The position numbers were made by a program, and so were the translations under genes. Source: a bacterium (GTDB lineage: Bacteria; Bacillota; Clostridia; Lachnospirales; Lachnospiraceae). From it: a stretch of DNA of 64,000 nucleotides. Positions 23,476 to 40,232 of this stretch are shown piece by piece (positions within the stretch are counted from its first letter, which is position 1; every line of letters begins with the position of its first letter). The stretch lies in contig JAMPGX010000001.1 of assembly GCA_023663725.1 (NCBI GenBank), positions 124,001 through 188,000 on the forward strand, given 5' to 3'. Below the pieces are notes generated by a model. That model was not told the DNA's origin and did not search any database. It saw nothing but the letters and a program-made list of their open reading frames with translations.

Positions 23476-23821
23476 AGCTCTCCTCGCTTCCGCATGGCCT
23501 GTCGTACTGTCCCCGCACAGAGCGCCATGCCATCATCTATGCCAGTCTCTCTTTCGCACTACAGATACAATTATACACCTCATTTCCTACAGATTCCACC
23601 ACTTTTTTCAAAAATTCCCGCTTTCTGAATTCCCGTTCCACGCGCATCACCCTATTAACGCCTGTTCATCTCCACTCGCCATCCCTGTTATCTTTATACT
23701 TTCAAAATAGGGATTTCCTTTTTTTTACAAAAGCTCTATAATAATATCAAAAGCATCTCAAAATATTTATCCACCGTATAGGCGATTGTATACCTGTCTA
23801 TTGCCTATACCTAACTTGCAT
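23476..23821. other. Intergenic region upstream of eda
   Basis: No gene. The minus strand must hold the eda-kdgK promoter, but no clear -35/-10 pair stands out. At 23779-23807 there is a 29-base inverted repeat, TAGGCGATTG and TATTGCCTA around a short centre. It resembles two family A ends joined together and may be a remnant. The region ends with CTAACTTGCAT (23811-23821), repeated at 24204-24214 on the other side of element A1. Confidence 0.5.
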
Positions 23822-24203
23822 TAGGCAATTGCAAAACAGTTTATTGTCAGTACCGAATTGTGCATATTGTATATTCCATAAGCAAGCCCTTTCGCACCGT
23901 CGGTACTTAGCGAGGTCTGCCGAATTCATTCGGCACGAGCTTAGTACCGCTACGGTGAGAACGGAGCGAAAGCGTGCTTGCGTTGGAATATACAATATAC
24001 ACAATGACACTAGTGTACTGTACCGTTCACATTTCACCAAATGACTTGCCTGAATTTCCATCTGCTGCGTTGGCTTCAATCGACGTAGCCACCGCTACGC
24101 CTCATTCAGCCGCCTTGCAGACTGAAAATCCATTCTGCGTCATTTAGCTGAAAATGAACGGTACAGCACACTAGCAAAGTAACCGATTTTCGCAAACGCC
24201 TAA
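23822..24203. repeat. Family A element, copy A1, carrying nested element B2
   Basis: Left end TAGGCAATTGCAAAAC; right end complementary (TTTTCGCAAACGCCTA). Identical 11-bp sequences CTAACTTGCAT stand immediately outside (23811-23821 and 24204-24214), consistent with a target-site duplication. Inside is a nested fold: outer stem ATTGTATATTCC/GGAATATACAAT, then GCAAGC/GCTTGC, CTTTCGCACCG/CGGTGAG..GCGAAAG, CGGTACT/AGTACCG and a terminal TGCCGAA/TTCGGCA hairpin. Family B copy B2 interrupts the right arm at 24010. The element lies directly upstream of the GH27 gene. Short open frames on both strands are by-products of the palindrome. Confidence 0.85.
24010..24174. repeat. Family B element, copy B2 (long form, 165 bp)
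   Basis: Ends CTAGTGTACTGTACCGTTCA and TGAACGGTACAGCACACTAG are inverted repeats. The interior includes GCGTTGGCTTCAATCGACGT and a second, loosely complementary half. It sits within element A1, just after the GACACT that ends the A core, and separates that core from the A right end. B4 matches its left half of about 90 bases. Confidence 0.85.
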
Positions 24204-24232
24204 CTAACTTGCATATCAGAAAGGAGTTACCT

Positions 24233-25516
24233 ATGAACAATAAGAACGAATTCGCCCCCACCCCACCCATGGGCTGGAACAGCTATGACTACTACGACAC
24301 CACCGTAAACGAGCAACAGGTCAGAGCCAATGCGGACTATATGGCCACGCATCTGAAGCAGTACGGCTGGGAATATATCGTGATCGATATCGAGTGGTAC
24401 GCCATCGGCGCGGGAAGCCGCCGCGACGAGCACCAATATATTCCCTTTGCAGAGGTGGCCATGGACGAGTACTCCCGCCTGCTGCCGGATCCGGCCCGCT
24501 TCCCCTCCGCCGCGGATGGGGCAGGCTTCAGGCCTCTGGCTGACTACATACACAGTCTGGGACTGAAATTCGGCATCCATATCATGAGAGGCATTCCCCG
24601 AATCGCCGCCCACCATCACTGCGCCATCAAGGGCACCAAGGTGACTGCGGACGATGTGGCCATCGCCTCCTCAGTCTGCCCCTGGAACCCTGACATGTAC
24701 GGAGTAAAGGACACCCCAGCGGGCCAGACCTACTACGACTCCCTGATGGAGCTGTATGCCTCCTGGGGAGTGGACTTTATCAAATGTGACGATATCTGCC
24801 GCTATGACCAGCCCTCCTGCAAGGATGAGGTGCGTATGTTGTCCACGGCGATCAGGCGCTGCGGACGTCCGATTGTGCTGTCCCTGTCCCCCGGCCCCGC
24901 CAGGATCGATCAGGCCTGGTACTATGAGACCCATGCCAATATGTGGCGCATCACGGATGATTTCTGGGACAATTTCGACCTGCTGAAAAATATGTTCTAC
25001 CGCTGCGAGCTGTGGCAGGAGCATGTGTCTGCGGGCTGTTACCCCGACTGCGACATGCTGCCCATCGGTATGCTTGGCAAGGGCTTCGGGCATGAGCGCC
25101 CCTCCCATTTCACGCGGGACGAGGCCCGTACCATGATGACCCTGTGGTGTCTGTTCGGCTCCCCGCTGATGATCGGCGCGGAACTGACCCTGCTGGACCC
25201 GGCCACCCTGTCTCTGCTGACCAATGAGGAGCTGCTGGCTATGCTGCCTCCCCAGGTAAAGCCCCGCCAAATCTGTCTGTACGATAAAAAAGCCATCTGG
25301 CGGGCAGATGACTGGACGGCAGACCTCCACTATATCGCGCTGTTCAATCTGGGAGAAGAGACGCAGACCCTGTCCGTTTCTCTGGAGGAGTTGGGCTATG
25401 AGGGAAGGATTGCGCTGAAAGAGCTTTGGACTAAGGAAAACAGTCTGACAGAGTCCGCAATTTCCACAGAAATCGCCCCCCACGCCTGTGCAGTGTACCA
25501 GCTCAGTCCTCAGTAG
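24233..25516 (+). CDS. GH27 family alpha-galactosidase
   Basis: 427 aa, no signal peptide, so it acts on imported galactosides. The N-terminus APTPPMGWNSYDYYDTTVNE is the family 27 signature. GWEYIVIDIEWY, GLKFGIHIMRGIPR and VDFIKCDDICRYD (expected nucleophile Asp) follow. HANMWRITDDFWDNF holds the expected acid/base Asp near residue 250. The end of the (beta/alpha)8 barrel (GSPLMIGAEL) and a C-terminal beta domain complete it. ATG at 24233 has AAAGGAG 6 bases upstream. Related enzymes can be beta-L-arabinopyranosidases. Elements A1 and B2 replace the usual upstream region, so its promoter is either inside them or upstream. Confidence 0.85.
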   Translation: MNNKNEFAPTPPMGWNSYDYYDTTVNEQQVRANADYMATHLKQYGWEYIVIDIEWYAIGAGSRRDEHQYIPFAEVAMDEYSRLLPDPARFPSAADGAGFRPLADYIHSLGLKFGIHIMRGIPRIAAHHHCAIKGTKVTADDVAIASSVCPWNPDMYGVKDTPAGQTYYDSLMELYASWGVDFIKCDDICRYDQPSCKDEVRMLSTAIRRCGRPIVLSLSPGPARIDQAWYYETHANMWRITDDFWDNFDLLKNMFYRCELWQEHVSAGCYPDCDMLPIGMLGKGFGHERPSHFTRDEARTMMTLWCLFGSPLMIGAELTLLDPATLSLLTNEELLAMLPPQVKPRQICLYDKKAIWRADDWTADLHYIALFNLGEETQTLSVSLEELGYEGRIALKELWTKENSLTESAISTEIAPHACAVYQLSPQ

Positions 25517-25535
25517 CGCTGCAAGACGCATCAGG

Positions 25536-25578
25536 AAGGGGACGGGATACCGTTACTGGCATCTCGTCCCCTTTTCTT
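25536..25578 (+). terminator. Terminator after the GH27 gene
   Basis: AAGGGGACGGGAT and ATCTCGTCCCCTT form a long stem with GG/CC inside and a short loop, followed by TTCTTCT on the plus strand, 20 bases after the stop codon. Confidence 0.8.
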
Positions 25579-25612
25579 CTACTGCTTATGTACCGGATAA
25601 CCAACGACGCAG

Positions 25613-27919
25613 TCAACGCCGTACCTGCTCATACTTTGATAGATACCGGCCCTCAAATTCATCTACCGGCATGGGCTTGGCAAAATAATAACCCTGGAAG
25701 ATATCCGTGCCGATCTCTGTGAGGAAATCAACCTGTTCCCTGGTCTCCACACCCTCGGTAATCACTTCCATGCCCAACTGCTTGGACAGGGAGACTATCA
25801 TCTTGAGTATTGTGCGGGTACGCTCAGGATTCTCGGTTCTGCGCAAGAATTCCATATCTATCTTGAGCGTGTCCACCGTCATATTCTTGAGCATATTTAA
25901 CGATGAGTAACCGCTTCCAAAATCATCCATCTCGACACAGAAGCCGTATTCCCGCAGGCGCTGAATCAATACTAGCTGCTTTTTAAAGTCGGTCATAATC
26001 GCCGTCTCCGTAATCTCCAACCGCAGATTTCGGGGATTGATTTCGTATTTTTCCGCAAGTCCGGTAAATATCTTATATATATCCGTAAAGTAAAAATCCT
26101 TAGGCGAAATATTCACGGAAATATGATAGTTTGCGTATCCTTTCTCTTTCCACTCGCGAAGCTTCATACAGGCCATCTCCCAGATATTCATGTCCAGACG
26201 GCAGATCAGCCCTGTCCGCTCCAGAACGCCGATAAATCCACCAGGAGAAACCAGCCCGCGCTCTGGATGAATCCACCGCACCAGAGCTTCTCCGCCCAAT
26301 ACCTTCCCTGTGACAGACACCTGCGGCTGCAGATAGAAGCAGAACTGTCCATCACGCAGGGCCGTTCCGAACTCAGCGGATACCTTCTGTTCCTCAAGCG
26401 TCGCCTCGCGAATCTCGTCGTCATAGTGAGCTATCATGTCCGTAAAGCTTGATTTAATCGTAGTGATCGCCATAAATGCCCTGTCACACATAACCGACGG
26501 TTCGATATCCTTGTCGACAATATCGTAAACCCCAATATGAATATGCAGCTTATAGGTCGACGCTCCAAGGAGCTGCCCAAGGCTTCTGATTTCGTTGGCA
26601 AAAACCTCCTTATCAAAGCGCTTTTTCGGCATACAGATCGCAAAGCGATCCCCTGACAATCTGCAATAAACCGATCCCTTGCCCGAAAGCTTTCTCAGTG
26701 AATTTGCAATGCTCACAAGAATCTCGTCACCCACATTGATCCCAAAAATATCATTGATCAGCTTAAAATCCCTGATGTCCGAGCACACCATACAGTATTC
26801 TCCCGCAGGCGCGTTTCTGACTGTCTCCGCGACTCTCTCATAAAAATATTCGCGATTATAGATTCCTGTAAGCCGATCTCTGGTCGCGCGAAAGCGCTCC
26901 GCTTCCAGCTTTTTCACATCCTCCGTCTCGTCATGTATCTTAAAAAAGCATCCCACGCAGTTCCCATCCCCATCACACAATCTCTTGAACTGCGAGGCAT
27001 AATACCGCTGCGCTTCACCCTCTCCGCGCACCTCTTTCCACTCAGAGTCCTCCGTCTGTGAGAGCTCCCTGCCATTCATCCATTCCTGATAGTACGCCGT
27101 CAGCGGCTCCGTGTCATCTGTTTTAAAAAAGACATATGCCACAGAGTTGGCATACACGCAGTTCCCCTCGACGTCAAAGCAGATCACGCTGTCATCCATA
27201 TTCTTGATGCTGGAGGACAGCAGGCCCTCAATCAAGCCCTGCGGGACATAGATCACGTTAAAATAGTATATTGCCACCGCCATGATTCCGTAGGACAAGA
27301 CAGAGAAATCAATCTTCATATCCGTGAGCAGATAGACGACATTAGCGGCGATAATGACGATCAGACTCAGCAATGTCAACCAATATTTTTTGCGGTACAT
27401 GGACGGCGAGCGCACGATCTTGACTACCAGCGGGAGGACCACCATCACCACCAGCGCATAGATAATCGTCCGGTGCAGGTTGTACAGGCCGCCCCTCTCG
27501 GCAATTCCGTAAAACATCGTCCCTGACCCGTCATCCATCAGCTCGCAGCGGAATATGAATACCTTTTCGGTGAATACATTCAACAGCATTAACAGTCCAT
27601 CAACGCCGACAATGCAGTACAGCACCACCTGTTGAACAGGACGCAGCTCATATACCTTGGTATACTTCAGCGCATAAAACAGCATACAGATCAGCAGGAT
27701 GTCCGATATCGTGTAGTATGTCGCATACATCAGATCGGCAAAGGGCTGTCCGGCTGCGAGTAAGGCCCAGGCATACGCCACCATTGTGCAGGGCGCGGCA
27801 ATCATAATATAGCTGATCGATCTTGTAAGCGGTGTCTTATCTCTCTTGGCGATAATCCAACTGCAGACCAATATGACAAGAGCAAACATCAGCAGCAGCG
27901 TCATATAGATATTTCTCAT
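25613..27919 (-). CDS. Membrane GGDEF/EAL protein with 7TM sensor and PAS domain
   Basis: 768 aa from ATG 27919 (GGGGGGATAGG site). The open frame continues to 28006 without a better start. About seven membrane segments (residues 5-225) resemble the histidine-kinase 7TM sensor module. They are followed by a PAS domain (about 235-350) and a GGDEF domain with signature LSGDRFAI, too degenerate for a cyclase. The EAL domain is intact: GGEALVRWIHPERG, SVNISPKDF, LEITETAIM, MDDFGSGYSSL, LKIDMEFL, TEGVETREQ and FQGYYFAKPMP. It is therefore probably a c-di-GMP phosphodiesterase responding to a membrane or periplasmic signal. It follows the yfhO-like gene by about 100 bp. Confidence 0.88.
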   Translation of the reverse strand: MRNIYMTLLLMFALVILVCSWIIAKRDKTPLTRSISYIMIAAPCTMVAYAWALLAAGQPFADLMYATYYTISDILLICMLFYALKYTKVYELRPVQQVVLYCIVGVDGLLMLLNVFTEKVFIFRCELMDDGSGTMFYGIAERGGLYNLHRTIIYALVVMVVLPLVVKIVRSPSMYRKKYWLTLLSLIVIIAANVVYLLTDMKIDFSVLSYGIMAVAIYYFNVIYVPQGLIEGLLSSSIKNMDDSVICFDVEGNCVYANSVAYVFFKTDDTEPLTAYYQEWMNGRELSQTEDSEWKEVRGEGEAQRYYASQFKRLCDGDGNCVGCFFKIHDETEDVKKLEAERFRATRDRLTGIYNREYFYERVAETVRNAPAGEYCMVCSDIRDFKLINDIFGINVGDEILVSIANSLRKLSGKGSVYCRLSGDRFAICMPKKRFDKEVFANEIRSLGQLLGASTYKLHIHIGVYDIVDKDIEPSVMCDRAFMAITTIKSSFTDMIAHYDDEIREATLEEQKVSAEFGTALRDGQFCFYLQPQVSVTGKVLGGEALVRWIHPERGLVSPGGFIGVLERTGLICRLDMNIWEMACMKLREWKEKGYANYHISVNISPKDFYFTDIYKIFTGLAEKYEINPRNLRLEITETAIMTDFKKQLVLIQRLREYGFCVEMDDFGSGYSSLNMLKNMTVDTLKIDMEFLRRTENPERTRTILKMIVSLSKQLGMEVITEGVETREQVDFLTEIGTDIFQGYYFAKPMPVDEFEGRYLSKYEQVRR

Positions 27920-28021
27920 TCCTATCCCCCCACATTTGCAAGCAGGCATGCTCTGCGCCCGCATATCCTCCGAGGCCAGTATGTTTATATACAAATATAT
28001 TGGCATATTTTCGACAAATAG

Positions 28022-30589
28022 TCAATATTTTCCATAAAATGCTTTGCGGCGTCGCCAGAGCATGATCCCGACAAACACCAAAATGCTTACCACACTGAGC
28101 AAAATTCCCTGCCTCAGACCATAGGGCTCATATGACAATTCAATCCGATAGCTCCCCTGCTCCAGATCCAACGCCATCAGACATCCACCAACCAGCGCAG
28201 GCTCCGTCTTCTCCCCGTTTACCAGGATGCTCCACCCCTTCTCATAGGGGATGGACAGAATCAGCCTGCCGGCCTCCGCCAGCTCCAGGCTGCCGCTCAC
28301 ATGAGTATCGTCATAGCTCACCTCCTCCAGATGCCGACCTCCCAACACCTCCAGCGCCTCTGTCAGCACCTCCTCATCCATCCGCCAGGCGCTCAAGCGA
28401 AACTGCGGCGTGTCGTCGCTGTCGTCATCGTTGGCGAAGCTCACGCTCTGCCCCTCTTCAAGATATCCGACATACAGCACGGAATACGCCTTCAAATCCG
28501 CGTATTTGCGCTCCAATGCTCCCGTCATCGCAATTTTCTTGGTGCCCGAGCCTGTGAGTATCATATAGTAATAACCGTCCTGCCTGGCTGTCATCGTCAC
28601 CTTTTCCTCGGAGGATTTGCAGTCCGCCCTCACAAACAGACTGCCCTCAACTCCCAGCAGCTCCACCATCTCATTCTGCAGCTTCAGCGGCTCCCCCTTG
28701 TATCCCTCGGGCAGATCATAGCCCACAGGCGCCACATAGCCAAAGGACAGCGTGGCATTGCAGGCGTACAGCGCCACCTCGCCGCTGGTATCCACCAGCT
28801 TGTACAGACTGTTTTCCTCGCTCTGCACCTCCTCCTCATCCGCTCCGCCGGCCTCTCCAAACATATAGTTCACATTCAGAAGCGCCGAGAGAAAAGCCGT
28901 GGCCCCGTCGTAGCTGTAATATACCTTACTGTGGCGCATTCCCAGCCGCTCATAGAGATCCGCCACCGGAGAATTCATCGTCGAGGAGAACACGGAGGCC
29001 GTGGGATAGCCTGCCAGAGTGCCATCATTCTTGGTGGTGCGGGAGAATTTCTCCATCCGGAATATCGCCTCATTGCCGCCCTCCGCCTCGCGCTGTCGGG
29101 CCAGACCGACAAGCGCCTCATAATGCTCCAGCTGTCCCAGATAGGCGCTGCGGCTGGTAGTGCCCACGCTGGTATCGAAGGTGTTCACGCTTGTCTCCAA
29201 CACTACAGTCAACAGGGCAAGCACCGCCAGATATCTATTCCTCCCACCCCGACCGCAGCGGGTGTAATACAGATGCAGCAGGATGGCAGCAACCGTCACA
29301 AATACCAGAGTAACCAGCCACACCTCCTGCGAGAAATCCTCATGCTCAATAAACTGCTGGCAGCAGAGCAAAAACAGCACTGTCCCCAGATAACTGTATA
29401 AGATATACTTGGCCTCCAGATCGCGCAGATGCCAGAAGCAGTCAAAACACATCGTCAGAATCAGGAAAATATAGAGAAAGGTCTGTCTGCCCGGCAGCGA
29501 GTCGGGATAATTAAACCCATGCCACACAAAATCAAGAGCATTGGTACCAAAGCTGACCAGCATAAAGCCCGCCAGCGCCAGATGGACAAACCGCTTTCTC
29601 AGCGGTATCCCTGGATTGACCGCATACAGGGGCACCAACAGGAAAGCCGCCACGCCGCAATAGATATTGGGCCAGTGAGCCAGCCCCCGCTCCGCGGACA
29701 CACAGAGGCAATGCCTCGCCAACACCTCCAGCACAGAAAAATAGTCCTTAACCTCCGAGGGAAAGCTGCTGTGGCCAAAATCCGTGGCCAGAAGCGCACA
29801 GGCCTCCGGCACCAGCAGTATCGCCGCCATCCCACCTGCCAGCAGCGAAAACAGGATAAAATCCCACAGAATTCGCAGACTGTGTTTTTCCGCAAGCAGC
29901 TGCGCCAGAAAGTACAGCACCAGGAAGATGCACACCATGATGGAGAGATAGAAATTCGTATAGATGGACAGAGCCAGCGAGACGCAATACAGCCCGCAGC
30001 GTCCCTCCTTCACCAGCCGCTCCAGCCCCAGCAATACCAACGGCAACAGTATCACCGGGTCCAGCCACATAATATTCCAGTTGTAGGCCGCCATGAAACC
30101 GGACAGCGCATAGAAGCAGGAAAACAGCACACAGGCGAAACAGCGAGTACGGTAGCGACGCTGCAGATACAGGCAGGCCGTCAACCCACACAACCCCACC
30201 TTGCACACCACCAGATAGCTCAAAAACTCCATCATAAGAGTTTCAGGAAACAGCGCTCCCAGAAAATGCAGCGGGCAGGCCAGATAATACGCATAGAGCG
30301 CCACAAAATTGGACCCGATGCCCACATTCCAGGTATAGGCCAGGCTCCCCCCTTCGTGAAGCTTGTGATACAATTCACTGAAAAAAGGCATATACTGGTG
30401 GTACATATCCATATAGAGGAAGCTTCTCCCCCCGAACGGATAGATGGATCTGAAGAAAAAGAGCACCAGCATAATTGCGGTGGGAATGCCCCACGCGGCC
30501 ACCAATCCGACGTTAATCTGTATGCTTCGATGCCGGTCAGTCTCTTCCCCTGACCGGTCGGGTATCATTTTGCGCAATATCTTATACAC
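28022..30589 (-). CDS. YfhO-family polytopic membrane protein
   Basis: 855 aa with a dozen or more hydrophobic helices in the first 480 residues, then a large outside domain (about 490-820), and a final helix. FGGRSFLYMDMYHQYMPFFSELYHKL near the start holds the D-x-x-Q-Y pattern typical of YfhO proteins. NWNIMWLDPVILLPLVLLGLERL and the C-terminal GWSILVNGEK are also typical. YfhO proteins are GT-C-like and are linked to glycosylation of lipoteichoic acid or other surface polymers in Firmicutes. Its start overlaps the GH95 stop by 8 bases. Confidence 0.88.
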   Translation of the reverse strand: MYKILRKMIPDRSGEETDRHRSIQINVGLVAAWGIPTAIMLVLFFFRSIYPFGGRSFLYMDMYHQYMPFFSELYHKLHEGGSLAYTWNVGIGSNFVALYAYYLACPLHFLGALFPETLMMEFLSYLVVCKVGLCGLTACLYLQRRYRTRCFACVLFSCFYALSGFMAAYNWNIMWLDPVILLPLVLLGLERLVKEGRCGLYCVSLALSIYTNFYLSIMVCIFLVLYFLAQLLAEKHSLRILWDFILFSLLAGGMAAILLVPEACALLATDFGHSSFPSEVKDYFSVLEVLARHCLCVSAERGLAHWPNIYCGVAAFLLVPLYAVNPGIPLRKRFVHLALAGFMLVSFGTNALDFVWHGFNYPDSLPGRQTFLYIFLILTMCFDCFWHLRDLEAKYILYSYLGTVLFLLCCQQFIEHEDFSQEVWLVTLVFVTVAAILLHLYYTRCGRGGRNRYLAVLALLTVVLETSVNTFDTSVGTTSRSAYLGQLEHYEALVGLARQREAEGGNEAIFRMEKFSRTTKNDGTLAGYPTASVFSSTMNSPVADLYERLGMRHSKVYYSYDGATAFLSALLNVNYMFGEAGGADEEEVQSEENSLYKLVDTSGEVALYACNATLSFGYVAPVGYDLPEGYKGEPLKLQNEMVELLGVEGSLFVRADCKSSEEKVTMTARQDGYYYMILTGSGTKKIAMTGALERKYADLKAYSVLYVGYLEEGQSVSFANDDDSDDTPQFRLSAWRMDEEVLTEALEVLGGRHLEEVSYDDTHVSGSLELAEAGRLILSIPYEKGWSILVNGEKTEPALVGGCLMALDLEQGSYRIELSYEPYGLRQGILLSVVSILVFVGIMLWRRRKAFYGKY

Positions 30590-33044: not shown

Positions 33045-33067
33045 CGTCTGCGTCCTCCCTGCGCACA

Positions 33068-33144: not shown

Positions 33145-33147
33145 TTA

Positions 33148-33443
33148 TCAGGCGATTGTAAAAGCTAGTGTACTGACACGTTCATAATTTGACTAATGAG
33201 CGTGTCAGCACACTAGATGCTATGCGAGTGTCATTGTGCATATTGTATACTCCAACGCAAGCACGCTCTCGCTCCGTTCTCACCGTAGCGGTACTAAGTT
33301 CGTGCCGAATAAATTCGTCAAACCTCACTAAGTACCGACGGCTCGTGGTGTTACGGTTGCAAACCGTAACACGAGGCATTGCTTATGGAATATACAATAT
33401 ACACAATTCGGTACTGGCGATAGACAGTTTTGCAATTGCCTAA
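33148..33443. repeat. Family A element, copy A2 (inverted relative to A1), carrying nested B3
   Basis: Ends TCAGGCGATTGTAAAAG (left) and TTTTGCAATTGCCTAA (right). Read on the minus strand it has the same nested fold as A1: TATTGTATATTCC/GGAGTATACAATA, then GCAA/TTGC, then CGGTACT/AGTACCG. It also carries an additional inserted hairpin, TGTTACGG/CCGTAACA. Family B copy B3 interrupts the arm next to the left end, as B2 does in A1. No clear target duplication is visible. Confidence 0.82.
33165..33216. repeat. Family B palindrome, copy B3 (short form)
   Basis: CTAGTGTACTGACACG and CGTGTCAGCACACTAG flank a 20-base centre. It is a short version like B1. The stem pair ACACG/CGTGT differs from B1 and B2 with pairing preserved. 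Nested in A2. Confidence 0.85.
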
Positions 33444-33728
33444 GTGTATTTATTGTACCATCTTTTCCTACTCTTGGAAATGAATTCATAAAAAATTAAG
33501 GGTTTTCATATGTTATTAGGAGTCAAATACCCCTCAGCAAGTTGACGGGGCATCACTCCTGCAAAGCTGCAGGGTATCTGACCCTCGCGGCGTTCGCCAA
33601 TATGCTCAGGCCAACCAAGGTTGACTATAGGCACCGGCACAAAGTCAACTATGTTGACTTGGCTCATTGCTCGCGGGAATAAACAGAGCAAGACAGTATC
33701 ACAAGCACGCTTGTAATATGGGGGATTT
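33444..33728. other. Intergenic region with several hairpins before the glutamine amidotransferase gene
   Basis: No gene is supported. The region contains AGTCAAATACCC paired with GGGTATCTGAC (33521-33584), an inner CCTGC/GCAGG hairpin, and a palindrome AGTCAACTATGTTGACTT (33644-33661) near a separate GTTGACTATAGGCACC. It ends in a good ribosome binding site (GGGGG). The density of complementary segments suggests a structured leader or a further repeat element. Only one copy occurs here. Confidence 0.4.
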
Positions 33729-34364
33729 ATGAAAATCGGAATTGTGGGAAAGAAAAAAGATACCGGCAATTATGAAGCTTTTATGAGAAATCATCAGATC
33801 GAATATCTGACCAGCCTCTCCATCAGTGAGCTGGGCAGCTGTGACAGCCTGCTCTTTCCGGGGGGAGGCGATATCACGCCCGCCTTTTTTGGAGAGCTTG
33901 ACCGTGGGTCCCGCTCTATCGACACAGAGTTGGATATCCTGCAGCTGCAGGCGCTGGAATACGGCGTGCAGCGCGGCATCCCCATTCTCGGCATCTGCAA
34001 GGGAATGCAGATCATCAATGTGGGACTGGGCGGCAGCATCATTCAGGATCTGCCCACAGCGGGCATACACCGGTATCAGGGTGCAGACCAATATCACGAG
34101 GCGGTCAATCTTCCCGACAGCTTCATCGCCGAGCTGTACGGAGAAACCATGGTGGTAAACAGCGCCCATCACCAGGGGCTGGGCAAGCTGGGCAAGGGGC
34201 TGCGTATCGTGTCCCGCTGCCCTCTTGATCAGTGCGTTGAAGCCGTCTGCCACGAATCCCTGCCGATCATTGGAGTCCAGTGGCACCCTGAACGACTCGA
34301 CCCTCTGCGTACAAGCGTCTCCGGCTCAGCGCTCCTGCACTATTTTCTGTCTCTCGGAGGATGA
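33729..34364 (+). CDS. Class I glutamine amidotransferase-like peptidase C26 (PuuD type)
   Basis: 211 aa. LLFPGGGDITPAFFGE near residue 40, GIPILGICKGMQIINVGLGG with the nucleophilic Cys near residue 89, and GVQWHPERLDP with the catalytic His near residue 180. This is the gamma-glutamyl-gamma-aminobutyrate hydrolase / peptidase C26 family, which removes gamma-glutamyl groups from amines or peptides. It is shorter than E. coli PuuD (about 254 aa). No putrescine genes are adjacent, so the substrate is open. Ribosome binding site GGGGGATTT. Confidence 0.88.
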   Translation: MKIGIVGKKKDTGNYEAFMRNHQIEYLTSLSISELGSCDSLLFPGGGDITPAFFGELDRGSRSIDTELDILQLQALEYGVQRGIPILGICKGMQIINVGLGGSIIQDLPTAGIHRYQGADQYHEAVNLPDSFIAELYGETMVVNSAHHQGLGKLGKGLRIVSRCPLDQCVEAVCHESLPIIGVQWHPERLDPLRTSVSGSALLHYFLSLGG

Positions 34365-34384
34365 ATGCGGCTGCCTGGAACCCC

Positions 34385-34473
34385 AGTGTACTGTACCGCT
34401 CACATTTCGCCAACTGATTTGCCTGCGTTTCCAACTGCTGCGTTGGCTTCCATCGACGTAGCAGTCGCTATCG
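34385..34473. repeat. Family B element, copy B4 (left half only), inside a coding sequence
   Basis: AGTGTACTGTACCGCTCACA begins a stretch of about 89 bases closely matching the left half of B2, including GCGTTGGCTTCCATCGACGT. The right half is missing. The 3' end of the DUF2974 gene on the minus strand lies inside it. Confidence 0.8.
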
Positions 34474-35602
34474 CCTCTGTCTCCCTCTTGGGGGCTCTCG
34501 CCCTAAGCTCCTGCTTCATACGCAGACCCGCGATCTCAAACAGCGATTTGACAGTCCTGCGCAGCGCTTTCTGGGTATCCTCGTCCAATCCTCTCATCGC
34601 CTCCACGACACCCTTCATGCTGCGTTTCAGATTGGTGGTAAAATCAATCAGGTTGTCCGCCTCTGAAGCTGACAGAATCTGAAACAGCGTGTCCACAAAG
34701 GTGCGCAGACTCTGCTCGTCCAGGGAGAGAATCCACTCGTTCAGCGTGTCATCCATAAAACGTCTGGTTTCATAGATATCAGACACCGTCACAAAATGCC
34801 CATCCTGCACCAGCCAGGTGAAGGGATTGTGCTGAGCTAAGCCAAAGGTGCGACTCTCCACTACCTGATAGCGGATATCCTTCTCAAACAGCATCCCCAC
34901 CAGCGAGGAGTGGGGCAAAATCTTGCAGGTGCGCTCCTCGATCTGTCCAAAATCACACTTTTCCAGAACCTCCGGACGAAAGCCGGGGCCATCCATACTG
35001 TAAATCTTGATAATGCGCTCCCTCACCTGAGGCGAACAGTTCATGGCCGCATAGACCGCTAGATTGCCGCCCTTGGAATGTCCGCCGATATAGAACCTGT
35101 GCGGAAGCCTCTCCGTGACCATATTCAGATATTTCACGGCAAACTCCTGCCCCGGCACCGGCGACAGAAAAGCCATATTGAAATCTTCCTTCCACCCCAC
35201 AATGGTCTCATCTGTCCCACGGTATGCGACATACATGCTGCCATCCTCCAGCAGCAAGGTCACAGCGGAAAATTGTGTCTCGAAATCCGCTCGGGTCTCG
35301 ATAATATTGACATAGCAGTTCAGCTTCATTTTCCGAAAGCGAACACTTTTTTGCATGGCTTCAAACAGAGCCCTGTTCTCCTTCTCATATCGCTCGTCCC
35401 CGTAGAGCTTTTCATAGTCCGGATGCCCGTATATCTGCTGCAGGGACACCGACCGGCCGTTCTCCGTCACCAGCGGCACCAGCCCGTCAAATTTCAGATA
35501 AGAGAACTGACACAGCACCAGGCTGTCCACGTCGTTCATCGGCTCTTCCTGCAGACTCACATCCGCGTATTCTCTCAGATAATCAATGATTGTTCCCTTC
35601 AT
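34400..35602 (-). CDS. DUF2974 (Mbeg1-like) alpha/beta-hydrolase with a repeat-derived C-terminus
   Basis: 400 aa. The N-terminus GTIIDYLREYADVSLQEEPMNDVDSLVLCQFSYL is typical of DUF2974. SMYVAYRGTDETIVGWKEDF and the nucleophile elbow FYIGGHSKGGNLAVYAAM (GxSxG) follow, so it is a probable lipase or esterase of the cytoplasm. Helical residues about 310-375 precede a tail. The last 24 residues (from AIATATSMEANAAVG to the stop) are encoded by repeat B4, so the original stop has been lost. The start codon overlaps the LCP gene stop (ATGA). Confidence 0.85.
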   Translation of the reverse strand: MKGTIIDYLREYADVSLQEEPMNDVDSLVLCQFSYLKFDGLVPLVTENGRSVSLQQIYGHPDYEKLYGDERYEKENRALFEAMQKSVRFRKMKLNCYVNIIETRADFETQFSAVTLLLEDGSMYVAYRGTDETIVGWKEDFNMAFLSPVPGQEFAVKYLNMVTERLPHRFYIGGHSKGGNLAVYAAMNCSPQVRERIIKIYSMDGPGFRPEVLEKCDFGQIEERTCKILPHSSLVGMLFEKDIRYQVVESRTFGLAQHNPFTWLVQDGHFVTVSDIYETRRFMDDTLNEWILSLDEQSLRTFVDTLFQILSASEADNLIDFTTNLKRSMKGVVEAMRGLDEDTQKALRRTVKSLFEIAGLRMKQELRARAPKRETEAIATATSMEANAAVGNAGKSVGEM

Positions 35603-36882
35603 GGCTCCTCCTGCTCTGTACCCTGCTGCTCCCCATAGATCTGTGTGCGGATAAACTCCTTGTTCTTCTCAAAGTCCACCTGCAGTACCGACATCTTGCG
35701 GATCGTAGCGTTCTGAAAGCTTCCCTCTATCGGGATGCTGGCCTGCACCAGATCATAGGTCAGCAGCTTGGGAGCCTCCAGGCTCAGGGCATAGCACTCT
35801 GACTTGCTGAGATTGGTAGTCAGATTGGGCAGGATGCCATCGATCATATCGCCTGCATTGGTGAGCAGAGAGGAGGGCAGCTGATGGAATACCGCCTCCA
35901 GAATCTTGCGCTGGCGCTCCGTGCGCCCGAAGTCCGTGCCAATATAGCGATTGCGGCTGTAGGCCAGGGCCTGAGGACCATTGAGATGCAGCCGCCCGCT
36001 GGCATCCGCCGGCAGATAGTCCGTATCTATAGGCCGCCCCTCCAGCATGTTATACTCATTCAGATAGGCGTTGACCAGCTGTACTTCCTCGTTCGTCAGC
36101 TCCAGCTCCACGCCGCCCACCGCGTCGATCAGATTGGCAAAGGCCTGGAAATTTACCTGCACATAGCGGTTCACCTCGATGTCCAGATTCAGCTTGATGG
36201 TCTCCAGGAGCAGCTCCGGTCCGCCAAAGGCGTAGGCCGCATTGAGCCGGTTGCCCTCATGTCCCGGAATCTCCACATAGATATCCCGCAGCAGGGATGT
36301 CATATAGATCGTCTTGGTGCGGTTGCTGACAGATACCAGAATCATGGCGTCGGAACGCCCATCCTCCCCGTTTTTCCGCGAGTCGTTGCCAATCAGGAGA
36401 ATATTGATGACGCCGTCCTCCTTCATGGGCTCGCCGGAGAGTATATCCGTCGGCGCATGTCCCACTCTGTCGTACAGATAGGATACAGCGGTATACCACA
36501 GGCCGACCAGCGCCAACAACAGCACCAGCACTACTGCCAGAAATCGTTTCAAACCTCTGCGCTTTTTCTTCTTTTTGCCCTGCGGACCGGATGCCTGCCC
36601 CCGTCCGCCCCGCTGCGGTTTCCTCTGCCCCGCGGATGTATCTGTCCTGTTCTGTGCCATAGCTGTCCTCACCGTTTCCCCGTCTCTATCTTCTCTGCTG
36701 TCTTCCTCTTCGCTGTCTTCTTTTTCATTATCTTCCTTTTCACTGTATTCCTTTTCCCCGTATGCTCCAGATCGGGACGCATACTCCTCATAGACCTCTT
36801 TCTCCAGAAATTCCTCCAGTCCTCTGTGGATTTGCTCCATCTCCGATCGCTTTCCTCTGCTATCCGCCTCCGCCATATTCAC
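35599..36882 (-). CDS. LytR-CpsA-Psr (LCP) family cell-wall polymer ligase
   Basis: 427 aa. A charged cytoplasmic N-terminus of about 125 residues (with EKEYSEKEDNEKEDSEEED and a KKKKKRRG stretch) is followed by one membrane helix (about 133-152). The outside LCP domain contains INILLIGNDSRKNGEDGRSDAMILVSV, MTSLLRDIYVEIPGHEGNRLNAAYAFGG and SRNRYIGTDFGRTERQRKIL. These hold the Arg and Asp residues that bind the polyprenyl pyrophosphate substrate. LCP proteins attach teichoic acids or capsule to peptidoglycan. It is cotranscribed with the DUF2974 gene and has its own promoter at 36935-36963. Confidence 0.93.
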   Translation of the reverse strand: MNMAEADSRGKRSEMEQIHRGLEEFLEKEVYEEYASRSGAYGEKEYSEKEDNEKEDSEEEDSREDRDGETVRTAMAQNRTDTSAGQRKPQRGGRGQASGPQGKKKKKRRGLKRFLAVVLVLLLALVGLWYTAVSYLYDRVGHAPTDILSGEPMKEDGVINILLIGNDSRKNGEDGRSDAMILVSVSNRTKTIYMTSLLRDIYVEIPGHEGNRLNAAYAFGGPELLLETIKLNLDIEVNRYVQVNFQAFANLIDAVGGVELELTNEEVQLVNAYLNEYNMLEGRPIDTDYLPADASGRLHLNGPQALAYSRNRYIGTDFGRTERQRKILEAVFHQLPSSLLTNAGDMIDGILPNLTTNLSKSECYALSLEAPKLLTYDLVQASIPIEGSFQNATIRKMSVLQVDFEKNKEFIRTQIYGEQQGTEQEEP

Positions 36883-36909
36883 ACCTTGCTTTCACATACC
36901 TCAAAATAC

Positions 36910-36937
36910 AATAATCGGGACTCACTTCCCGATTATT
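36910..36937 (-). terminator. Terminator after the sensor kinase gene
   Basis: AATAATCGGGA (36910-36920) and TCCCGATTATT (36927-36937), an 11-bp stem with a 6-base loop, followed on the minus strand by GTATTTTG. The -10 box of the LCP promoter (36935-36940) overlaps one arm, so the complete hairpin forms only in transcripts coming from upstream. Confidence 0.75.
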
Positions 36938-36963
36938 ATATTGCCCTTTTCGCTGAATGGCAA
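36935..36963 (-). promoter_or_regulatory. Promoter of the LCP-DUF2974 unit
   Basis: On the minus strand TTGCCA (36958-36963), 17 bases, TATAAT (36935-36940). TTGCC and GGCAA just before the -10 form an inverted repeat across the spacer. The response regulator promoter at 41189-41217 has the same layout. Confidence 0.75.
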
Positions 36964-36969
36964 GGCACT

Positions 36970-37875
36970 TTATGGAGAATTAATCAATTCTTTATTTTTG
37001 GTTTGCAAAGACAACAGAATACGCAGCCTCCCCTCCACCAGTTTGGCGCTCACTTGTCCGCCCATGCTCTCGGCCAACTCCTTTACAATGAACAGGCCCA
37101 GTCCGGAGGAGCCCTTTTGACGGGCCGGGTCCGCCTTATAGAATCTGTCAAAAATGTGTTCGGGGTCAGGTCTGTTGCCTGGCGGCACCTCATTGTCAAA
37201 TGTCAGACAACCTCCCTCCTGCCGGATTCTGATTTCCCCTGAGCCGTGAATCAGTCCATTCTGAATCAGGTTGAGAAAAATTCGACGCAGACATTCCTCG
37301 TCCGCCCACACCCGAATCTCCTCCTGCTGAAACTCCACTTCGGGAGAGACCCCTTTTTCCTCAAAGCTTCGGTACAATCCTACCAGACACTCGCTCAGAA
37401 GAGGCAATACCTGAATGTCCCGCATGTCCGGCGCATAGCCCTCACTGGTGAGCTTCGTGTATAGAAATAGCTCCTCCAGCATATCCTGCAGATCGCCCAG
37501 CCGCTCCTGTGCCACTCCCAGATAGTAATCCCGACGCTCATTCTCCGAGCACTCACGGGCAAGCTGCAGATATCCCGCGGCGCCGGTAAGCGGCGTGCGG
37601 ATATCGTGGGCCAGCCCCGCGATATTCTGCTTTAGCCGGTTTTCTGCCCTCTCATAGCGAATCTGGCCCTGACACCAATATGCGCGGAGATGATTCAGCT
37701 CCCGATACAGGGCCAGCATATCACGCTGCCGCCCCATTGTACCCAGCTCTATATGACTCCCCCGCTCCAACTCCTGAAGCTGCCTGCACAGGAACCGAAG
37801 CTCCTGAACACGGTGAATATGTCCCACCAGCAGAATCCCACAAAATATCGCCAATATCACCACTGCCACAACCAT
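36970..37875 (-). CDS. Sensor histidine kinase
   Basis: 301 aa. One membrane helix at residues 1-20, a short linker with little or no outside domain, and the dimerisation domain with LAHDIRTPLTGAAGYLQLA (phospho-acceptor His near residue 89). The catalytic domain has NLIQNGLIHG (N box), DRFYKADP (F box) and GSSGLGLFIVKELAE (G2 box). Small kinases of this form usually work with ABC transporters in sensing antimicrobial peptides. It is downstream of the ABC permease and ATPase genes. The likely partner regulator is at 40295, separated from this set by elements A3 and A4. Confidence 0.92.
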   Translation of the reverse strand: MVVAVVILAIFCGILLVGHIHRVQELRFLCRQLQELERGSHIELGTMGRQRDMLALYRELNHLRAYWCQGQIRYERAENRLKQNIAGLAHDIRTPLTGAAGYLQLARECSENERRDYYLGVAQERLGDLQDMLEELFLYTKLTSEGYAPDMRDIQVLPLLSECLVGLYRSFEEKGVSPEVEFQQEEIRVWADEECLRRIFLNLIQNGLIHGSGEIRIRQEGGCLTFDNEVPPGNRPDPEHIFDRFYKADPARQKGSSGLGLFIVKELAESMGGQVSAKLVEGRLRILLSLQTKNKELINSP

Positions 37876-37900
37876 ATCAATACTCCTATTAAAACTCCTA

Positions 37901-38737
37901 TTAAATGTCCTGCCGCCGCAGCACCAGTCCGGCTGTCACGGTATAGAGAAGCAGGAAACCGGCGCCCACCCCGTAGACATACAGATCCGCAGGGGAAGTG
38001 TAGCTGCCTGCACCCTGTTGGATACTCAGATAGATCGTATATTTCATCCAACCCGCCGCATGGAAGTTATTCAGTATCCCGTACAGAGCCATAGGAATCA
38101 GACCGCCTCCTATCAACACCGCCGTCAGCGTTCCCGCCGCCACGCTGCGGGTCCAGATACTGACCAGTATCACCATTGCGGCGAAGGCTGTGGTGAGCAG
38201 CCATACCCAGGACAGGTAGAACAGCAGACTTCCCACTCCGGTGTAGGGCACCATATTGCCAAACAGAAAGTTGAGCAGTATCGTAAAGCCCAACTGCAGC
38301 ACCAGATAGACGAGGTTCAACAGACCTGCCGTCAACACCTTGCTGCCCACATAGCTCCACCGGTTTTTATGGTGTGCCAGAATATTTTTGATAAATCCGC
38401 TCTGATAGTCCATGCACACAAACAATATGACCCATATCCCGAACACCAGGCTGTACATTCCTCCATTCATATCGCTCTGCCGGAACATGACCAAAGTGTC
38501 CACGCCATCCAATACACCGGAGAACTCCGCATACATCGCCTGCATCCCCCCGGCTTCCTCGATATCCTCCTCCCTGAACATACCGATGCTCAGCGCCACC
38601 TGCTGCCCCTGCGGTGTTCCTATCAGCCACAGCAGCCCATAGCAGAGTACTATCGTCACCAGCAGACAGGCCAGACAGACATAAGTCGATTTGCTCCTCA
38701 CCATTCTGTACAGATCCATGCGAAATTGATTAAACAT
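37901..38737 (-). CDS. ABC-2 type transporter permease
   Basis: 278 aa with six hydrophobic segments. It begins FRMDLYRMVRSKSTYVCLACLLVTIVL, and the first outside loop (about 45-95) carries charged residues. FILLNFLFGNMVPYTG and further helices follow. The layout is that of ABC-2 permeases of lantibiotic-immunity or multidrug exporters (LanE/G-like). Its start overlaps the ATPase gene by 8 bases. Role by context: export or detoxification of a membrane-active compound. Confidence 0.85.
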   Translation of the reverse strand: MFNQFRMDLYRMVRSKSTYVCLACLLVTIVLCYGLLWLIGTPQGQQVALSIGMFREEDIEEAGGMQAMYAEFSGVLDGVDTLVMFRQSDMNGGMYSLVFGIWVILFVCMDYQSGFIKNILAHHKNRWSYVGSKVLTAGLLNLVYLVLQLGFTILLNFLFGNMVPYTGVGSLLFYLSWVWLLTTAFAAMVILVSIWTRSVAAGTLTAVLIGGGLIPMALYGILNNFHAAGWMKYTIYLSIQQGAGSYTSPADLYVYGVGAGFLLLYTVTAGLVLRRQDI

Positions 38738-39659
38738 CTTCTTTTCCCCCCTCCATGCACTCCAGGAAATATTCCTCCAGGTTAATATGATGAAATCCTG
38801 ATGCGTATACCGCCGCGCCGCCCCTCGCCAGTATCCCGTTCAGCTCCGCGCCATCCGCAGGACCGTACACCCTTATCGTGCGCGCGTCAAACACCTCGGT
38901 TCGCAGCTGGGGAAAAGCCTCCTGAATCAGCGGCAACGCCACGCGCACATCCTCCACCTCAACCTGAAAATAATCCTGACTTTTATCCTCCAGCTCCTGA
39001 CGAGTGATCTGCTCGATCAGTTCCCCGTCCTTGATGATGCCGTAGTTGGTGGCTATCTTGCTCAGCTCTCCCAGAATATGGGAACTGAGCAGGATTGTTT
39101 TGCCCTCCTCCTGCAACTGTAGGAGGAGCTGCCTCAGCTCCTTGAATCCCTCCGGGTCCATGCCGTTGATAGGTTCGTCCAGGATCAGCAGATCGGGATT
39201 CCCCAGCAATGCCAGCGCCACTCCCAGCCGCTGTTTCATCCCCATGGAAAAATGTCTGACCTGCTTTTTTCCGGTATCCGCAAGTCCTGTCAGCTCCAGC
39301 ACCTCATCCACGCTCTTTTTCTCGGAAAGCCCCATGCATCTGGCTTTCATGACCACATTCTGCCTGGCCGTCATGTTGGGGTACAGGCCCGCAGACTCGA
39401 TCAGCACGCCCAGACGCCTGCGCACCACCGGATCGCTGACCGGCCTGTCGAACAGCATGGCCTCCCCCGATGTGGGAGCGACCAGACCGCTGAGCATCTT
39501 CAGGGTCGTGGATTTGCCGGCGCCGTTCCTGCCGATAAAGCCGTATATCTGCCCCACCCCCACCTGTAAATTCAGATCCTTTACCGCCGCCTTATCGCCG
39601 TAGCGCTTTGTCAGCCCTACCGTTTCCACGGCATATGCTTTTCTTTTTTCTGTACTCAC
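38730..39659 (-). CDS. ABC transporter ATP-binding protein
   Basis: 309 aa from GTG at 39659, chosen because AAAGGAG is 8 bases upstream. The frame continues to 39722 only by reading into repeat A3. Walker A GRNGAGKSTTLKML, signature FSMGMKQRLGVALALLGNPDLLILDEP (Walker B) and the H-loop SSHILGE are all present. A C-terminal extension (about 220-309) is like that of BcrA-type ATPases. It pairs with the permease downstream. Confidence 0.93.
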   Translation of the reverse strand: MSTEKRKAYAVETVGLTKRYGDKAAVKDLNLQVGVGQIYGFIGRNGAGKSTTLKMLSGLVAPTSGEAMLFDRPVSDPVVRRRLGVLIESAGLYPNMTARQNVVMKARCMGLSEKKSVDEVLELTGLADTGKKQVRHFSMGMKQRLGVALALLGNPDLLILDEPINGMDPEGFKELRQLLLQLQEEGKTILLSSHILGELSKIATNYGIIKDGELIEQITRQELEDKSQDYFQVEVEDVRVALPLIQEAFPQLRTEVFDARTIRVYGPADGAELNGILARGGAAVYASGFHHINLEEYFLECMEGGKEDV

Positions 39660-39691
39660 TTTTCTACTCCTTTCTGTCCAGAGAAGGTTCA

Positions 39692-39899
39692 TAGGCAGTT
39701 GCGAAACCTGGTTACTATGCAAGTGTCATGGTGCACATTGTATAATCCAACGTAGGCACGCTCTCGCTTCGTGAAAAACGTAACAGTGCTAAGCTCGAAA
39801 AAACCTCACTAAGCACTGACGTTTTTCAAGAGCCTACTTATGGAATATACAATATACACCATTCGATACCAGCAAAAAGATGGTTTGCGATTGCCTGTA
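39692..39899. repeat. Family A element, copy A3
   Basis: Left end TAGGCAGTTGCGAAACC; right end GGTTTGCGATTGCC. Read on the minus strand it has ATTGTATATTCC/GGATTATACAAT, GTAGGC/GCCTAC, TGAAAAACG/CGTTTTTCA and CAGTGCTTAG/CTTAGCACTG. Each differs from A1 by paired changes, and the innermost hairpin is deleted. Flanking 10-mers AGAAGGTTCA and ATAAGGTCCT agree at 7 of 10 positions, a possible decayed duplication. It lies immediately upstream of the ABC ATPase gene. Confidence 0.8.
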
Positions 39900-39911
39900 G
39901 ATAAGGTCCTA

Positions 39912-40232
39912 TAGACAATTGCAAAATCTTCTACAAGTAACGAAATTGTTCAATATAGGCAAAATGTTGTGCAAGTAAATCTACTATCCATATATGCTTT
40001 AATGCGGTGACAGAGTTGCCCTTATTTGTCTCTATTGCCAGTACCGAATTGTGTATATTGTATATTCCATAAGCAGACTCTTGAAAAACGTCGGCACTTA
40101 GCGAGGTCTGCCGAATTTATTCGGCACGAGCTTAGTGCCGTTACGTTTTTCACGAAGCGAGAGCGCGTCTGCGTTGGAATATACAATGTGCACAATGACA
40201 CTCGCATAGTAACTAAATTTGGAAAATGCCTA
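39912..40232. repeat. Family A element, copy A4, with about 110 bp of extra sequence on its left side
   Basis: Left end TAGACAATTGCAAAATC, right end GGAAAATGCCTA. The conserved core starts near 40030 and folds like A1 with paired substitutions: GCAGAC/GTCTGC instead of GCAAGC/GCTTGC, TGAAAAACG/CGTTTTTCA instead of the ACCG/CGGT region, and CGGCACT/AGTGCCG instead of CGGTACT/AGTACCG. The extra left part (39930-40028) has no counterpart in A1. A3 and A4 stand almost side by side in opposite orientation. Confidence 0.8.

What the first reader, a model, noticed from the sequence alone, without database searches (positions are those of the whole stretch)
23811..40232. Family A: dispersed palindromic elements with a nested fold kept by paired base changes
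Four elements (A1 23822-24203, A2 33148-33443, A3 39692-39899, A4 39912-40232) share ends close to TAGGCAATTGCRAAAC and the same order of helices. Several helices change on both sides between copies: GCAAGC/GCTTGC (A1), GCAGAC/GTCTGC (A4), GTAGGC/GCCTAC (A3); CGGTACT/AGTACCG (A1, A2), CGGCACT/AGTGCCG (A4), CAGTGCT/AGCACTG (A3); and ACCG/CGGT (A1) against TGAAAAACG/CGTTTTTCA (A3, A4). Unpaired CTTAG(C/T)GAGGT is constant in sequence. Such a pattern is expected if the folded form, as RNA or as extruded single-stranded DNA, is what is selected. Short parallel open frames are a by-product. It fits a non-autonomous mobile element whose helper is elsewhere, or a mobile structured RNA.
Basis: partly seen in the sequence, partly recalled or inferred. 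Interest (0 to 1): 0.82.

Follow-up and report, generated by a model that had tools for sequence, protein, structure and literature searches.

The report
Mobile hairpin DNA repeats of Lachnospiraceae
The four repeats are copies of a mobile, non-coding DNA element that folds into one elaborate hairpin; the same hairpin core is scattered through many genera of the gut-bacterial family Lachnospiraceae inside several different kinds of transposon ends, and its pairing seems to be kept at the level of DNA rather than RNA.

Summary
I extracted 64 copies from the own genome. Of 45 with both inverted ends, 18 have a 9-13 bp target duplication, 0.10 expected. A ~100-nt hairpin core with a three-way junction occurs in 79 of 101 genomes of the genus, 128 of 250 genomes of the family (105 below E 1e-6) and 5 of 196 of the class, all five in that family. 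It is not in Rfam 15. Covariation is overwhelming: 579 double-changed cells, 147 in shuffles. But G-U pairs are no commoner than A-C mismatches (ratio 0.9), while 6S RNA of the same family gives 24, and orientation to genes is inconsistent. So the pairing looks kept in DNA, not as RNA. The same core sits in three end types with 10-12, 8-11 and 8 bp duplications. For the 8 bp type the helper is an IS66-family element with the same ends. The window's own helper was not found. Best reading: a family-wide MITE-like DNA hairpin carried by several transposon types, a new variant of a known kind.

The parts
23811..23821 (.). left target duplication of A1 (CTAACTTGCAT)
   Evidence: read directly; repeated at 24204-24214
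23822..24202 (+). element A1, inverted ends 23822-23837 and 24187-24202
23874..23989 (+). conserved hairpin core of A1
   Evidence: cmsearch R1 100.6 bits
24010..24174 (.). second inverted-repeat element nested in the right arm of A1 (ends CTAGTGTACTG / CAGCACACTAG)
   Evidence: absent from the same place in the other A copies looked at
24204..24214 (.). right target duplication of A1 (CTAACTTGCAT)
33149..33442 (-). element A2, ends 33149-33164 and 33427-33442
33165..33216 (.). copy of the nested CTAGTGTACTG element inside A2
33249..33362 (-). conserved hairpin core of A2, with an extra hairpin inserted in the 5' strand
   Evidence: cmsearch R1 58.4 bits; read
39692..39897 (-). element A3, ends 39692-39707 and 39882-39897
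39744..39845 (-). conserved hairpin core of A3 (short apical loop)
   Evidence: cmsearch R1 111.3 bits; DNA fold z -6.8 for the element
39912..40232 (+). element A4; left part 39912-40033 resembles another repeat family with the same ends
   Evidence: by eye against the left flank of L014
40065..40180 (+). conserved hairpin core of A4
   Evidence: cmsearch R1 106.9 bits; DNA fold z -9.6 for 40034-40232

Best explanation
Family A is one lineage of a Lachnospiraceae-wide group of non-autonomous mobile DNA hairpins (MITE-like). Each copy is an extragenic palindrome with inverted ends, inserted with a short target duplication by a transposase acting in trans. For one end type (GTTACTKTTCACAC / GTAACAGTTCAGCC, 8 bp duplication) an IS66-family element with the same ends exists (shown by sequence); for the window's end type (TAGGCRATTGYRAAAC, 10-12 bp) the helper was not identified. 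Mobility itself is inferred from ends, duplications and copy number. Inside sits a conserved ~100-nt core: stem P2, a two-pair helix beside a GCGNRAGC mini-hairpin, stems P3 and P4, and an apical ACTTAGCGAGGU...CGAGCUUAGU hairpin with a kept T.T mismatch (shown by alignment). The stems stay complementary through DNA-level processes: the arms are copied from each other when either strand folds during replication (template switching; inferred), and copies whose hairpin no longer fits a DNA-binding partner are not propagated (inferred). Since the core is conserved while the ends change, it has been carried by at least three transposon end types (shown), presumably moved by different transposases (inferred for types i and ii).
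For: Copies: 61 blast matches in the own genome, some partial or antisense self-matches; 64 distinct copies extracted. Ends: 45 of 64 copies have both ends within 60 nt of the core, length 202-245 bp; 18 of these 45 have a 9-13 bp direct repeat with at most 1 mismatch (up to 2 bases offset allowed), 0.10 expected from mispaired flanks. Other end types: AATGTCATT, 5 of 8 testable of 20 copies fetched, 0.14 expected; GTAACAGTTCAGCC/GTTACTTTTCACAC, at least 6 of 8 bases in 7 of 12, 0.0076 expected per element. Helper of the last type: six IS66-family elements of 1984-2358 bp with such ends on both sides (16-23 of 24 bases alike), exact 8 bp duplications in 2 of 5 testable; in genome G174 the core element L356 has the ends of the local IS66 element L417 and an exact 8 bp duplication. 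Distribution: 79 of 101 genus genomes at E<=0.01 (72 below 1e-6), 128 of 250 family genomes and 127 of 249 genera at E<=0.001 (105 genomes below 1e-6), 5 of 196 class genomes, all 5 in that family. Fold: 579 double-changed cells against 147 +/- 9, covariation score 0.478 against 0.168, slid versions at most 0.105. DNA rather than RNA: G-U 1.9% and A-C 2.1% of variable-pair cells against 24.3% and 1.0% in 6S RNA of the same family; with one pipeline for both, ratio 1.24 against 24. Template-switch-like changes: L027 and L029 carry an adjacent two-base change in the left P3 arm that makes it fully complementary to an unchanged right arm; G017 P3 arms differ by runs of adjacent paired changes. 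Orientation, same:opposite direction in co-directional gaps: 29:16 in G000, 7:7 in G032, 2:11 in G017.
Against: For the window's own end type no helper was found: no Y1 transposase in G000, one DDE_Tnp_1 gene with only isolated 4-mismatch end-like hits, no relative of the IS66 transposase P0001 in G000. IS66 was found in only 2 of 11 genomes chosen for 8 bp-type ends, and P0001 relatives also occur in genomes without a core match (G130, G138). Within single genomes P1 is not strand-neutral: G-U 86 against A-C 14 in G000 (9 against 6 when each column-type counts once), 61:22 in G032, but 15:45 in G017; 121:127 over the 15 genomes (G032 and G017 included, G000 not). Copies in one genome share ancestry, so I read these as founder effects, but a weak strand preference in G000 is not excluded. 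In G000 none of the 61 copies with both neighbours called lies between converging genes, which a pure DNA parasite need not show; in G032 2 of 17 do. No insertion was caught against an empty site. 27 of 45 copies show no clean duplication at 1 mismatch.
Confidence: 0.65

Rival explanations
1. Mobile structured RNA: the element is transcribed, and the folded RNA (a trans RNA, or a cis element of 5' leaders) is what selection keeps; transposition only spreads it.
For: Very strong covariation with conserved unpaired residues and a GNRA-like hairpin. In G000 no copy of 61 lies between converging genes and 45 of 61 have the downstream gene in the same direction. P1 in G000 has G-U 86 against A-C 14.
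Against: G-U:A-C is 0.8-1.2 in the core against 24 for 6S RNA from the same family. Orientation is 7:7 in G032 and 2:11 in G017. No Rfam match. Several solo hairpins lie after terminators or beside tRNA genes (read by eye).
Confidence: 0.16
2. REP/BIME-type elements moved by a Y1 (RAYT, HUH) transposase that reads the hairpin as single-stranded DNA.
For: Extragenic imperfect palindromes with conserved mismatches, high copy number, solo hairpins in tandem pairs 43-51 bp apart.
Against: Y1_Tnp was found in 21 of 54 genomes with the core and 18 of 26 without it, and in none of G000, G017, G027, G032. Inverted ends with target duplications, and IS66 elements with the same ends, fit a DDE-type reaction (IS200/IS605 route recalled).
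Confidence: 0.06
3. Neutral palindrome: an ordinary MITE whose arms are homogenised by template switching, with no selection on the fold at all.
For: Absence of a G-U bias, template-switch-like clustered changes, long copy-specific inverted arms such as 29 bp in L311; the mechanism is described for rRNA stems in PMC8794818 (abstract and passages read).
Against: The apical loop, T.T mismatch, YTA bulge and GCGNRAGC hairpin recur across genera and in different end types; arm homogenisation alone would erase mismatches and would not conserve loops.
Confidence: 0.13

Closest known systems
IS66-derived MITEs (for the 8 bp end type)
   Same: Same ends as IS66-family elements of the same family of bacteria, 8 bp duplications
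   Different: Internal hairpin core shared with elements that have other ends and 10-12 bp duplications
MITEs of bacteria (e.g. Correia, RUP, bcr1; examples recalled)
   Same: Short, non-coding, inverted ends, target duplications, extragenic, many copies
   Different: The ends are not the conserved part: one core is shared between at least three end types across many genera of a family
REP / BIME / CGTC-tagged palindromes (PMC3733652, abstract and passages read)
   Same: Extragenic imperfect palindromes in high copy, often as doublets; CGTC REPs also lack a dedicated transposase, and that paper suggests that many transposases may move them
   Different: Core of ~100 nt with a three-way junction, larger than 20-40 bp REPs; not tied to Y1 transposases. 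That text has no hit for Firmicutes, Clostridi, Butyrivibrio or Eubacterium. The string CGTC stands at the foot of P4 in many copies but not in the solo hairpins read, so no kinship is claimed
ERIC-type long stem-loop repeats (PMC2267715, passages read)
   Same: A single long stem-loop predicted on both strands
   Different: Different hosts and internal architecture; no covariation test seen in the passages
Template-switch-maintained hairpins (PMC8794818, abstract and passages read)
   Same: Multibase paired changes explained by one replication event
   Different: There the object is rRNA; here a mobile DNA palindrome without G-U excess

Membership tests
MITE (non-autonomous TIR element) | terminal inverted repeats | tested here: met
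   174 end hits against 10 for the reversed pattern in the genome; 45 of 64 copies have both ends near the core
MITE (non-autonomous TIR element) | target-site duplication | tested here: met
   18 of 45 (0.10 expected) at 9-13 bp for type i; 7 of 12 at 8 bp for type iii; 5 of 8 for type ii
MITE (non-autonomous TIR element) | too short to encode a transposase | tested here: met
   202-245 bp for 45 measured copies
MITE (non-autonomous TIR element) | autonomous partner with the same ends, for the window's end type | tested here: inconclusive
   none found; only 100 of 174 end hits were listed and draft assemblies lose multi-copy IS
IS66-derived MITE (end type iii only, not the window's) | ends and 8 bp duplication of an IS66-family element, both in one genome | tested here: met
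   G174: IS66 element L417 and core element L356 (2 and 4 mismatches of 22, duplication 8 of 8). G377: transposase P0001 with a right end of this type (PF03050 57.6 bits; NCBIfam IS66 126 bits, under its cut-off of 180) and core element L258; its left end was not found. But IS66 in only 2 of 11 genomes searched
REP/RAYT | association with Y1_Tnp (PF01797) | tested here: not met
   21 of 54 genomes with core, 18 of 26 without; absent in G000
REP/RAYT | 20-40 bp palindrome with GTAG (or GGAG, recalled) at its foot | not tested
   the solo hairpins often follow GGAG or GAG by eye; no count was made
Structured RNA family | G-U pairs tolerated more than A-C in variable helices | tested here: not met
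   ratio 0.81-1.24 against 24 for 6S
Structured RNA family | match to a described Rfam 15 family | tested here: not met
   window gathering: only a tRNA; 7 loci at E up to 5: five weak hits under the families' cut-offs
Structured RNA family | transcribed and processed | not testable with these tools
   no expression data

The most novel reading that the evidence does not exclude
The core is a transferable DNA-hairpin module that exploits several unrelated transposition systems (IS66 for one end type, others for the rest): it is kept because its folded DNA, on either strand, is recognised, for example by a host or replication protein that brings transposase or fork to it, while the surrounding transposon ends are exchanged as hosts and helpers change. 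It would be a parasite of transposons defined by DNA shape rather than by end sequence.
Probability: 0.3. Interest if true: 0.82.

Novelty: new variant of a known kind. Interest (0 to 1): 0.62.

Why it matters
Between two fifths and half of the sampled genera of a dominant gut family carry a hairpin element, sometimes dozens of copies per genome, that Rfam does not name and that my paper searches did not find. It is also a warning: covariation this strong is usually taken as proof of a functional RNA, yet the missing G-U excess says that the pairing is maintained in DNA. And one hairpin core in several transposon end types is a natural experiment on what a transposition system sees in folded DNA.

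Tried and rejected
Cis-regulatory 5' leader RNA: suggested and partly (same direction 29, opposite 16, none convergent), dropped after G032 (7:7, 2 convergent) and G017 (2:11). The gene caller was my own codon-usage script trained on the window, so contexts are approximate; a first longest-ORF version (which gave 8 convergent contexts) was discarded. One search used 18 of the 20 G032 loci.

RNA strand signature: I first read G-U-like mismatches by eye in G032 as RNA evidence; P1 in G000 agreed (86:14), other genomes did not, and the core-level test against 6S RNA decided against it. tRNAs (26 G-U of 374 pairs) were not a fair control because the program brackets valid pairs only.

Helpers: Y1 and IS4-type not supported. 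I raised the confidence of the best explanation from 0.62 to 0.65 and lowered the RNA and REP rivals by 0.01 and 0.02 for this reason. Outer arms in G174 that I had taken for copy-specific host sequence proved to be the ends of the local IS66 element and are no longer cited as such. Apical pattern in 2.9 million viral contigs: 0 matches. A4 core against 72,556 plasmid records: none.

Rows dropped: one search used 104 of 117 rows of A2 (identical rows and rows under 90 nt removed); one search used the rows of at least 90 nt (112 of 117, counted), near-duplicates included; one search used 62 of 64 copies; one search left out one G017 copy for a short alignment and did not include L332; could test 8 of 20 G032 copies; one search was given 100 and 93 of the loci then held. 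In one search the best match was at least 59 bits in 45 of 93 sources, 48-53 bits in 3, under 40 bits in 42 (mostly the apical hairpin alone), none in 3. 6S: 30 of 58 matches aligned. In one search the right end of L200 was set by motif inside the script. Counts 'below E 1e-6' are my own count of the printed lists.


Full report
WHAT WAS CLAIMED AND WHAT IS THERE. All are present. A search of the own genome (window = contig C11:124001-188000; 3.63 Mb, 49 contigs) gave 61 matches to A4, some partial or antisense self-matches. From the fetched loci I extracted 64 distinct copies, a lower bound. The ends TAGGCRATTGYRAAAC occur 174 times in the genome at up to 2 mismatches, against 10 for the reversed pattern; some belong to other short families without the core, so several miniature elements share one set of ends.

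INSERTION. In 45 of 64 copies both ends are recognisable within 60 nt of the core (at most 4 mismatches each); lengths are 202-245 bp. Direct repeats of 9-13 bp, with up to two bases of offset, flank the element at no more than one mismatch in 18 of 45 copies (0.10 expected from mispaired flanks), without mismatch in 8 of 45 (0.01), with two in 27 of 45 (0.61). A1 has CTAACTTGCAT on both sides. These are the marks of a transposase acting on terminal inverted repeats.

THE CORE IS FAMILY-WIDE. The 181 bp around the A4 core matched 15 of 60 relatives by blastn, all in the same genus. In several of those genomes the outer stem has an unrelated sequence yet is still complementary. I aligned 24 copies from 15 genomes. 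RNAalifold found the structure that I had drawn by hand: P2, a two-pair helix next to a GCGNRAGC mini-hairpin, P3, P4 and an apical hairpin. A covariance model (R1) then matched 79 of 101 genomes of the genus at E<=0.01 (72 below 1e-6), 128 of 250 genomes and 127 of 249 genera of the family at E<=0.001 (105 genomes below 1e-6), and 5 of 196 genomes of the class, all five in the same family. No match in viral contigs or, for the A4 core, in plasmids. Rfam 15 has no family for it.

SOLO FORMS. In many records only the apical hairpin is present. Of 93 pattern loci, the best match is at least 59 bits in 45, 48-53 in 3, under 40 bits in 42 (mostly the ~30-nt hairpin) and absent in 3; in 11 of the 42 two hairpins start 43-51 bp apart. 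Several lie, by eye, after terminators or beside tRNA genes. Two apical variants recur, ACTTAGCGAGGT...CGAGCTTAGT and ACTTAG-stem-loop-CTTAYGT.

DIFFERENT ENDS AROUND ONE CORE. Type i is the window's TAGGCRATTGYRAAAC with 10-12 bp duplications, also seen in another genus (L369). Type ii (AATGTCATTTAGTT, genome G032) has duplications of at least 8 bp, up to 11 by eye, in 5 of 8 testable copies (0.14 expected). Type iii (GTAACAGTTCAGCC or GTTACTTTTCACAC) has 8 bp duplications: at least 6 of 8 identical in 7 of 12 elements (0.0076 expected per element), in records of Acetatifactor, [Clostridium] symbiosum bin S32_Bin7 and others. One of the seven (L198:1210-1462) gave no R1 match. In L143 and L198 type iii ends enclose type ii ends.

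HELPERS. For type iii the partner is an IS66-family element. In G377, the genome of core element L258, a 387-aa transposase (P0001; PF03050 57.6 bits; NCBIfam IS66 126 bits, below that model's cut-off of 180) is followed by an exact type iii right end; a left end was not found. Relatives of P0001 were found in 21 of 299 family genomes, several as fragments, none in G000. Six of their loci hold type iii ends on both sides of the gene, 1984-2358 bp apart and alike in 16-23 of 24 bases; exact 8 bp duplications in L415 and L420, 2 of 5 testable; the broken pair L419/L435 of one genome also shares an 8-mer. In G174 the IS66 element L417 ends in GTTACTTTTCACGGGGTGGGGAAA, and of the four core elements fetched there L356 has that end (2 and 4 mismatches of 22) with an exact 8 bp duplication; L355 is more diverged, L354 and L357 decayed. 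Against this, IS66 turned up in only 2 of 11 genomes chosen for type iii ends and P0001 relatives occur in two genomes without a core match (G130, G138). For types i and ii no helper was found: Y1_Tnp is in 21 of 54 genomes with the core and 18 of 26 without, not in G000; G000 has one DDE_Tnp_1 gene without the ends. Draft assemblies lose multi-copy insertion sequences, so absence is weak evidence.

FOLD KEPT BY PAIRED CHANGES. On 109 distinct sequences 92.9% of cells pair (shuffled 74.7), 579 cells are changed on both sides (147 +/- 9), the covariation score is 0.478 (0.168 +/- 0.006); sliding the partners gives at most 0.105. That alignment was fitted to the model; the unfitted one of 24 sequences gives 89 double-changed cells against 25 +/- 4 and 0.376 against 0.166 +/- 0.012. 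Relatedness inflates such counts, but the slid controls leave little doubt.

RNA OR DNA. A fold selected as RNA tolerates G-U and not A-C, and A-C on one strand is G-T on the other. Control: 6S RNA from the same family (30 of 58 matches aligned). In variable pairs 6S has G-U 24.3% and A-C 1.0%; the core 1.9% and 2.1%. With one pipeline for both the ratios are 24 and 1.24. 22 of the 63 A-C cells lie in one column. Within single genomes P1 is uneven in both directions: G000 86:14, or 9:6 when each column-type counts once; G032 61:22, G017 15:45, 121:127 over the 15 genomes (G000 not included). Orientation to genes varies: same:opposite 29:16 in G000 with no convergent gap in 61, 7:7 in G032 with 2 convergent of 17, 2:11 in G017. 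So I give up the RNA reading as the main one.

HOW THE ARMS STAY ALIKE. Template switching inside a hairpin copies one arm onto the other in one event and is proposed for rRNA stems (PMC8794818; abstract and passages). It needs no G-U intermediate. In G000, L027 and L029 differ by an adjacent two-base change in the left P3 arm that makes it fully complementary to an unchanged right arm. In G017 the P3 arms differ by runs of adjacent paired changes. In G032 some copies have long copy-specific inverted outer arms, 29 bp in L311. But template switching alone cannot conserve a T.T mismatch, a YTA bulge, the apical loop and the mini-hairpin across genera, so I infer selection for recognition by a DNA-binding partner. 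The share of double changes that are transversions (241 of 599 in the core, 33 of 108 in 6S) does not separate the cases clearly.

KNOWN KINDS. The element meets the MITE criteria tested here; its type iii form is an IS66-derived MITE in at least one genome; its layout recalls REP/BIME palindromes without their transposase. CGTC-tagged REPs also lack a dedicated transposase (PMC3733652, passages). Paper searches for a description in Lachnospiraceae found none; the library holds open-licence papers only. I call it a new variant of a known kind.

Noticed in passing
window 43477-43619: A further miniature element with type i ends (TAGGTAATTATGAAAC / TAGTCAGTTGCGAAAC); R1 does not match it. End pairs at a similar spacing lie at C44:212180, C29:17834 and C48:34921.
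   Followed up: partly
window 14812-14863, 24010-24174, 33165-33216: Another small inverted-repeat family (CTAGTGTACTG...), twice nested inside family A elements (nesting by eye).
   Followed up: no
window 23779-23807: A 29-bp mini-palindrome TAGGCGATTG...TATTGCCTA just left of A1, possibly a remnant of an earlier type i element.
   Followed up: no
L010 minus-strand copy (G000:C17:26115-26293): Left arm of one P3/P4 type joined to the right arm of the other, so the fold is broken: probable recombination between copies.
   Followed up: no
G000, 61 copies with both neighbouring genes called: No copy between converging genes; many lie, by eye, just upstream of a Shine-Dalgarno sequence.
   Followed up: partly
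L166:3273-3502 and L182:5686-5805: Tandem arrays of the two apical hairpin types, about 101 and 92 bp per unit.
   Followed up: no
L144:307-349: A 42-bp minimal element with type iii ends and almost nothing between them; the 8 bp next to its ends do not match (3 of 8).
   Followed up: no
L403:656-1069 (G377): A 137-aa open frame, perhaps coiled-coil, upstream of the IS66-like transposase; Pfam gives only matches under the cut-offs.
   Followed up: no
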